DNA from: Opitutaceae bacterium
Lineage (GTDB): Bacteria; Verrucomicrobiota; Verrucomicrobiia; Opitutales; Opitutaceae
Direction of reading: 5' to 3'
Length of the DNA: 64,000 nucleotides
NCBI GenBank assembly: GCA_005799525.1
Contig: SYGN01000290.1
Span: forward strand, 17,535-81,534
How positions within the stretch are numbered: position 1 is the first letter of the stretch; every line of letters starts with the position of its first letter. Below the pieces are notes generated by a model. That model did no database searches. It was not told the DNA's origin and saw nothing but the letters and a program-made list of their open reading frames with translations. Positions 54,342 through 55,960 of the stretch are shown one piece after another. Made by a program: the position numbers and the translations under genes.

Positions 54342-55322
54342 GTGATCGCCTCCGTCGCATTTCGAAAATTCAAAGCGCTGCGGGAAACGAGCCTGACGCT
54401 GCTGCCGTTTAACCTCGTCATCGGTCCCAATGGCAGCGGTAAGACGAGTCTCATCCAAGCTCTGCTGCGGTTGCGGACACTTTCGAAGCTGCCGTTGGCG
54501 GAAGGGGAACAGCGGACGGACGGACCGGAAATAGAATTTCGTTTTTTTCCGCCGCATGATTCGGTGCAGGCGCGATTGGGGTGCAGGTCGGAGGTGGTGT
54601 GCGATTTGTTGCAAGTGATCCCGCCTGATGCGCCCGATTGGCCGACGTTGCGGGAGCGCGTGGGACATATCCGCAGTTATTTTTTTGATCATTACGCGAT
54701 GGCGGAACCATCGTCAGCAAAGACCGGTGCGGAACTCTCCTCCAACGGCGGGACTCTGGCGGCGGTCCTCGGAGGATTGCGCCGACGTGCGCCGGTGGAG
54801 TTTGCGGCACTCGTCGCGGAAGGGGTGCGGCTGTGGCCGGAGTATGTGGGCTTAGAGGTGGCCGAGAGCGACGGAGGCGTGGTGGAGTTTTCCATGCGCC
54901 TGGTGGATGGCGGGCTCGTCTCGGCCGAGAATCTCTCGCAGGGCACGCTCTATTTGCTAGCCATGCTCGTCATCGCGTTCGAACCGGATCCGCCGGCGGT
55001 GCTGTGTATCGAGGAGATCGACCGCGGGATTCATCCGCGCTTGCTGCGCGAGGTGCGCGATGTGCTCTACCGGCTGAGTTACCCAAAGTCGTTCGGACTC
55101 GCGCGGCAGGCGGTGCAGGTGATTGCAACGACGCATTCGCCCTACTTGCTCGACTTGTTCCGAGACCATCCAGAGGAAATCGTCATCGCGCAGAAGCAGG
55201 GAACGGTGGCGCGCTTCGAACGGCTCGCGGATCGTCCGGATATCAAGGAACTGCTCATCGAAGGCTCCCTCGGCGACATGTGGTTCAGCGGTATTCTTGG
55301 GGGCGTCCCGGACGAGCGATGA
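54342..55322 (+). CDS. Compact ABC-type AAA ATPase (AAA15/AAA21, RecF/OLD-like)
   Basis: FRKFKALRETSLTLLPFNLVIGPNGSGKTSL (Walker A), LSQGTLYLLAML (signature), VLCIEEIDRGIHP (Walker B), ATTHSPYLLD (H-loop); GTG start proposed. Confidence 0.82.
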   Translation: MIASVAFRKFKALRETSLTLLPFNLVIGPNGSGKTSLIQALLRLRTLSKLPLAEGEQRTDGPEIEFRFFPPHDSVQARLGCRSEVVCDLLQVIPPDAPDWPTLRERVGHIRSYFFDHYAMAEPSSAKTGAELSSNGGTLAAVLGGLRRRAPVEFAALVAEGVRLWPEYVGLEVAESDGGVVEFSMRLVDGGLVSAENLSQGTLYLLAMLVIAFEPDPPAVLCIEEIDRGIHPRLLREVRDVLYRLSYPKSFGLARQAVQVIATTHSPYLLDLFRDHPEEIVIAQKQGTVARFERLADRPDIKELLIEGSLGDMWFSGILGGVPDER

Positions 55323-55960
55323 AAGTCGCGTTGCTCAGTGAATCGCCCGCCGATGAGGCGGTCTTGCGCGTGCTTGTTGAGGCGGTGTTGGGAGCGCCCC
55401 CGAAATTCGTGGCACCGGGGTTGCGGGCGCGGGGATGGCCGAATGTCGCCCAAGTCTTGCCGGCGGTGATCCACCATTTGCATTTCAACACCGACACCGA
55501 TGCGCTCGTCGTCAGTTGCGACTCGGACGACACGGTGGTGCATACGGCGGCGCACAACGCCCCGGGTTATTATCATCCGCACTGCCGGATGTGCCAGTTG
55601 CGCGGGATATTTCACCGCACGACCAAGAAATTTCCGGCGGCGCGGGGGCGCTCCCGTGTCCTCCGCGGCGTCGGCGTGGCGGTGCCAGCCCTAGAAGCGT
55701 GGCTCCTCTGTGGCCGCGATCCGCAGGTGAGCGAGGCGCTGTGGATCGCTGGGCAAGAGCAGCGGGCGCAGCCCTATTCGCGGGCGGAACTGAAATGGCG
55801 AGCGTATGGCACGGATCGGCCGAGCCTGGCGCACGAGATCCGCTGTTCGTTACACGAGCTGGAGCGCCACCGCCGGGATACGCGCAGGTTGGAGAATGAT
55901 TTTCCCGGATTCGCGGAACTAGCGTCGGATTTGCGGGAATGGAGCAAAAGGGTCGGCTGA
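55319..55960 (+). CDS. TOPRIM/DUF4276-like partner protein
   Basis: ATGA overlap with the ATPase; ESPADEAVLRVLVEAVLG (acidic Glu region) and DALVVSCDSDDT (DxD-like) plus HPHCRMC. Confidence 0.55.
   Translation: MKVALLSESPADEAVLRVLVEAVLGAPPKFVAPGLRARGWPNVAQVLPAVIHHLHFNTDTDALVVSCDSDDTVVHTAAHNAPGYYHPHCRMCQLRGIFHRTTKKFPAARGRSRVLRGVGVAVPALEAWLLCGRDPQVSEALWIAGQEQRAQPYSRAELKWRAYGTDRPSLAHEIRCSLHELERHRRDTRRLENDFPGFAELASDLREWSKRVG

What the first reader, a model, noticed from the sequence alone, without database searches (positions are those of the whole stretch)
54342..55960. Compact ATPase + TOPRIM-like two-gene cassette: candidate defence system
Gene 1 is a short ABC-type AAA ATPase with Walker A, signature, Walker B (EE) and H-loop but no long coiled coil. 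Gene 2 overlaps it by ATGA and has an N-terminal ESPADE segment plus VVSCDSDDT, matching the Glu and DxD pattern of TOPRIM-fold nucleases, with an additional HPHCRMC insert. OLD, Gabija and PARIS (AriA/AriB) defences pair this ATPase class with TOPRIM or nuclease effectors. The pair is tucked between unrelated lipid/envelope genes, as expected for a small cargo module.
Basis: partly seen in the sequence, partly recalled or inferred. Interest (0 to 1): 0.68.

Follow-up and report, generated by a model that had tools for sequence, protein, structure and literature searches.

The report
Fixed ATPase–TOPRIM-like pair in Opitutaceae
Two overlapping genes encode an ATP-driven switch protein and a probable nuclease of a kind otherwise listed among candidate anti-phage systems, but in this bacterial family the pair is inherited with the chromosome at one fixed place, is strongly conserved, and has been lost only as a unit.

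Summary
Gene 1 (54342-55322) is a 326-aa AAA_21 ABC-type ATPase. Gene 2 (55319-55960, ATGA overlap) is a 213-aa protein with no direct family hit. A divergent Planctomycete relative of gene 2 matches DUF4276 over its full length (E=3e-5) and the PADLOC HEC-01B models. Profile comparison puts D68 and E126 in register with DUF4276, and a confident AlphaFold model (pLDDT 93) has the same element order. These residues are invariant in 53 Opitutaceae copies, as is a putative zinc insert H-x3-H-x9-C-x2-C.

The 'small cargo module' reading fails. The pair is single-copy, in 115 of 172 Opitutaceae genomes (32 of 40 genera), in a conserved neighbourhood (RND–TolC–AsmA / pair / acyltransferase–AMP-ligase). 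Its distances track the flanking genes (r 0.76-0.92); dN/dS is 0.07-0.20. No plasmid, phage or viral copy was found. Six genomes show clean empty sites lacking both genes.

Most likely it is an ATP-gated TOPRIM-like nuclease pair of the HEC-01 kind, working like PARIS/split OLD, kept as a resident, dispensable immune module. A domesticated host role, as shown for the vertically inherited OLD-family protein Cran1, is the main rival. New variant of a known kind; function untested.

The parts
54342..55322 (+). Gene 1: AAA_21-family ABC-type ATPase, 326 aa, GTG start
   Evidence: Pfam AAA_21 1e-30; best PADLOC hit HEC-01A 2.2e-35, AriA 1.3e-31; homologues begin at the same residue
54423..54446 (+). 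Walker A GPNGSGKT (residues 28-35)
   Evidence: G28, N30-K34 invariant in 22 homologues
54933..54947 (+). ABC signature LSQGT (residues 198-202)
   Evidence: S199 and G201 invariant
54996..55022 (+). Walker B with double Glu, AVLCIEEID (residues 219-227)
   Evidence: E224, E225, D227 invariant
55125..55139 (+). H-loop ATTHS (residues 262-266)
   Evidence: T263 and S266 invariant, H265 nearly so
55263..55310 (+). C-terminal motif GSLGDMWFSGILGGVP
   Evidence: strongly conserved; a similar motif ends the Planctomycete copies
55319..55960 (+). Gene 2: DUF4276/HEC-01B-like TOPRIM-type protein, 213 aa; start codon overlaps the gene-1 stop (ATGA)
   Evidence: no direct family hit; linked to DUF4276 through L133, hhalign and model
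55340..55357 (+). ESPADE: putative catalytic E8 (end of strand 1) and D12
   Evidence: invariant in 53 of 53 Opitutaceae copies and in the outgroup copies
55520..55531 (+). DSDD: putative metal-binding D68-x-D70 (end of strand 3)
   Evidence: D68 invariant everywhere; D70 invariant in Opitutaceae, Asn in several Planctomycete copies
55541..55594 (+). Putative zinc insert H75-x3-H79-x9-C89-x2-C92
   Evidence: all four residues invariant in 53 of 53 Opitutaceae copies; not in the DUF4276 alignment; lost in one Planctomycete copy, L132
55673..55708 (+). GVAVPALEAWLL: putative E126, matches the DUF4276 'HEFEALLF' motif
   Evidence: E126 and W128 invariant; aligned by hhalign

Best explanation
The two genes encode one functional unit: an ABC-type ATPase and a TOPRIM-like, metal-dependent nuclease of the DUF4276 type, i.e. 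a divergent pair of the HEC-01 kind. By analogy with PARIS (AriA/AriB) and OLD, the ATPase is inferred to dimerise on ATP, hold gene 2 in check, and free or fire it when a trigger binds; gene 2 would then cut nucleic acid (tRNA or DNA). In Opitutaceae the module is a resident, vertically inherited and non-essential chromosomal system, most likely used for phage or mobile-element defence. Shown here: the pair, its motifs, the family relationship, the fixed locus, purifying selection and loss as a unit. Inferred: complex formation, gating, nuclease activity, trigger and defence role.
For: Gene 1: AAA_21; top PADLOC families HEC-01A and AriA. Gene 2: divergent relative L133, itself downstream of an AAA_21 ATPase with an overlap, matches DUF4276 at E=3e-5 over 185 residues and HEC-01B at 1.3e-5. 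HEC-01B models recognise DUF4276 proteins. hhalign to DUF4276 gives Prob 52%, P 1.5e-4 with D68 and E126 aligned, against 8% for RloB and 6% for an unrelated control. The order of secondary-structure elements matches a DUF4276 model. Best BFVD fold match is an RloB-like protein, prob 0.93 but E 0.011. All 26 genomes with gene 2 also have gene 1. Strong purifying selection. Both genes are absent together at six clean empty sites, so the pair is a dispensable unit.
Against: Most defence systems are patchy, mobile and fast-evolving. This pair is syntenic, vertical and slow-evolving, and lies beside envelope genes, not defence genes. No phage, plasmid or viral copies were found. No PDB fold match to gene 2 is significant. 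The direct window-to-DUF4276 link is weak and depends on intermediates.
Confidence: 0.5

Rival explanations
1. A domesticated pair: the same ATPase-TOPRIM machinery now serves a host function (DNA repair, replication stress, chromosome or cell-cycle control, tRNA turnover) and not defence, as reported for Cran1.
For: Lineage-restricted vertical inheritance in a fixed locus; dN/dS similar to a neighbouring rRNA-methyltransferase-like gene and an amidohydrolase; precedent: the vertically inherited OLD-family protein Cran1 acts in the cell cycle and is apparently not antiviral (PMC12796447).
Against: Complete loss of both genes in several lineages shows it is dispensable; the nearest catalogued relatives are candidate defence genes.
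Confidence: 0.32
2. A recently acquired mobile cargo module.
For: Two compact overlapping genes next to unrelated envelope genes.
Against: Same locus in many genera; gene tree mostly groups by genus; distances follow the flanking genes; GC and GC3 like the neighbours; no phage, plasmid or viral copies.
Confidence: 0.04
3. Gene 2 is a TOPRIM-like, zinc-stabilised nucleic-acid-binding or regulatory protein without nuclease activity, and the pair is a sensor or remodelling complex.
For: Unusual H-x3-H-x9-C-x2-C insert next to the DxD; D70 is Asn in several Planctomycete copies.
Against: E8, D12, D68, D70 and E126 are strictly invariant in 53 Opitutaceae copies, as expected of an active site.
Confidence: 0.14

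Closest known systems
HEC-01 (PADLOC candidate system: HEC-01A AAA_21 ATPase + HEC-01B DUF4276 protein)
   Same: Two genes, same order; AAA_21 ATPase with HEC-01A as top hit; gene 2 linked to HEC-01B/DUF4276 through an intermediate. A canonical pair is seen in a related family (L186, 2202-3386 and 3389-4051).
   Different: Gene 2 itself matches no HEC-01B model; extra zinc-like insert; RGWP motif; fixed chromosomal locus and vertical inheritance.
PARIS (AriA/AriB)
   Same: Split ABC-type ATPase and TOPRIM nuclease; AriA is the next best PADLOC family for gene 1.
   Different: AriB is of another family (DUF4435, per PMC9122126 and own knowledge); no hit for gene 2; no phage-satellite or hotspot context.
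RloB (PF13707)
   Same: Same sequence pattern E...DxD...E-x-W; best BFVD fold hit for gene 2 is RloB-like.
   Different: hhalign to RloB is hardly better than the unrelated control (8% vs 6%), below DUF4276 (52%).
Cran1 (vertically inherited OLD-family protein of Sulfolobales)
   Same: OLD-related ATPase + TOPRIM machinery, lineage-restricted and vertically inherited.
   Different: Cran1 is a fused, apparently essential archaeal protein; the present pair is split and dispensable.

Membership tests
HEC-01 | HEC-01A-type AAA_21 ATPase | tested here: met
   HEC-01A is the top PADLOC hit, 120 bits, E=2.2e-35; PADLOC's own cut-off was not available, and AriA scores nearly as high
HEC-01 | Adjacent HEC-01B (DUF4276) protein by HMM | tested here: not met
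   Gene 2: no hit at E<=1. Only relatives such as L133 (1.3e-5) and L085 (5e-4) score
DUF4276 (PF14103) | Pfam hit over the gathering score (30.2 bits) | tested here: not met
   Gene 2: no hit; divergent homologue L133 24.8 bits, E=3e-5, full length
DUF4276 (PF14103) | Same fold order and conserved acidic residues in register | tested here: met
   hhalign P 1.5e-4 with D68 and E126 aligned; same order of secondary-structure elements in both models; models were not superposed
PARIS | AriB of the DUF4435 type | tested here: not met
   No Pfam or PADLOC hit for gene 2
PARIS | ABC-type ATPase of the AriA kind | tested here: inconclusive
   AriA 1.3e-31, but HEC-01A and generic AAA_21 score alike
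OLD / Gabija GajA | ATPase and TOPRIM fused in one chain | tested here: not met
   Two separate ORFs
TOPRIM nuclease fold | Match to a solved TOPRIM structure | tested here: inconclusive
   No significant Foldseek PDB match; GajA rank 39, E=0.15; strand-end E and DxD positions fit
Defence system | Protection against phage | not testable with these tools
   needs an experiment

The most novel reading that the evidence does not exclude
A bacterial family has fixed an ATPase-TOPRIM-like 'defence' pair in one chromosomal locus for a host function: a bacterial counterpart of Cran1 made from a HEC-01-like module, with a zinc-bearing TOPRIM-like variant.
Probability: 0.28. Interest if true: 0.7.

Novelty: new variant of a known kind. 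Interest (0 to 1): 0.42.

Why it matters
It links a sequence-orphan family to DUF4276 TOPRIM-like proteins and gives a case of an ATPase–TOPRIM-like pair that is inherited vertically and lost cleanly, so defence and domesticated roles can be compared between congeneric genomes with and without it.

Tried and rejected
Direct Pfam, NCBIfam and PADLOC searches of gene 2: no hit. PDB sequence search of gene-2 profiles: only chance ARF GTPase matches. Foldseek against PDB: generic alpha/beta matches only. RloB and DUF4435 were tried as alternative parents: RloB hhalign hardly better than control; DUF4435 too rare in the phylum for an alignment. Mobile-cargo reading rejected. The AcylAMP dN/dS values are void (wrong frame used) and not used. 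A first gene-2 frame was off by one base. No paper in the library mentions DUF4276.

Full report
Observation. Gene 1 occupies 54342-55322 (GTG start; homologues start at the same residue) and gene 2 occupies 55319-55960, sharing ATGA. Pfam places gene 1 in AAA_21 (1e-30). Among PADLOC models HEC-01A (2.2e-35) and AriA (1.3e-31) lead. Gene 2 has no hit in Pfam, PADLOC or NCBIfam.

What gene 2 is. A search of the phylum of the Planctomycete genome with the family profile found five more genomes with a match besides the L085 genome; in the four whose matches span most of the protein, the gene lies directly after an AAA_21-like ATPase gene. The most divergent, L133, matches DUF4276 over residues 7-191 at E=3e-5 (below the gathering score) and HEC-01B at 1.3e-5. 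HEC-01B models recognise ordinary DUF4276 proteins strongly. Profile comparison of the gene-2 family with a DUF4276 alignment gives Prob 52%, P 1.5e-4, with D68 and the EAWLL glutamate aligned to their DUF4276 counterparts; RloB gives 8% and an unrelated control 6%. Foldseek gave no significant PDB match; the best BFVD match is an RloB-like protein (E=0.011, prob 0.93). The TOPRIM-like assignment therefore rests on family linkage and motif position, not on a solved structure.

Conservation. In 53 Opitutaceae copies E8, D12, D68, D70, E126 and the putative zinc ligands H75, H79, C89 and C92 are invariant. In two Planctomycete outgroup copies D70 is Asn, and one further copy lacks the zinc insert. 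The ATGA overlap is found in 23 of the 29 loci where it could be measured. dN/dS against relatives in the genus is 0.07-0.14 for gene 2 and 0.14-0.20 for gene 1, near neighbouring housekeeping genes.

Distribution and inheritance. Gene 2 is in 115 of 172 Opitutaceae genomes (32 of 40 genera), nearly always once. It was not found elsewhere in the sampled class or phylum, though six of 392 genomes of the Planctomycete phylum have a match. All 26 relatives with gene 2 also have gene 1. The neighbourhood RND–TolC–AsmA / pair / acyltransferase–AMP-ligase recurs across genera. The gene-2 tree groups g1, g16, g52, g53, g54 and g3, with some scatter in g7 and g19. Pair distances correlate with flanking-gene distances (r 0.76-0.92, 0 of 2000 permutations reach it). 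Six genomes (G023, G033, G233, G031, G305, G025) have AsmA directly followed by the acyltransferase gene with about 100-630 bp between, while congeners (G308, G239, G028) carry the pair at that point. The simplest reading is ancestral presence with repeated loss of the whole pair; repeated gain at one site is not formally excluded. No plasmid, phage or viral relatives were found.

Function. AriB is a two-metal TOPRIM tRNase of PARIS (PMC12409363), and PARIS has been proposed as a split 'class 4' OLD system (PMC10568477). By analogy the pair should be an ATP-gated nuclease. Several HEC systems have shown antiviral activity (PMC12988326), but I found no statement that HEC-01 is among them. Cran1 shows that a vertically inherited OLD-family protein can have a cell-cycle role and not defence (PMC12796447). 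Here dispensability favours an accessory role such as defence; fixed locus and slow evolution favour domestication. I put defence slightly ahead.

Noticed in passing
L086:8675-10890, L057:10896-14081; also L055, L065, L067, L068, L079, L080, L087: In many relatives a MarR-family regulator and membrane proteins DUF2157, GDYXXLXY and/or DUF2339 lie between gene 2 and the acyltransferase gene; in G033 these are missing together with the pair.
   Followed up: partly
L186:645-4051 (G051): A canonical AAA_21 + DUF4276 (HEC-01-type) pair beside what looks like a SIR2-like gene, in another family of the same order.
   Followed up: partly
L185:3367-4371 (G044): An orphan ATPase about 43% identical to gene 1, without a TOPRIM-like partner, after a release-factor (prfA-like) gene.
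   Followed up: partly
L053: RND, TolC and AsmA are only 56-69% identical to the window while the pair and downstream genes are 86-92%, suggesting replacement of the upstream block.
   Followed up: no
PADLOC model PDLC04143 (seen with L114 and L116): This 190-position model is labelled HEC-01A but is the best match of DUF4276 proteins (L114, L116); the label looks swapped.
   Followed up: no
L043 (G352): The gene-2 copy of this g19 genome groups with g15, away from the two other g19 copies; transfer or MAG contamination.
   Followed up: no
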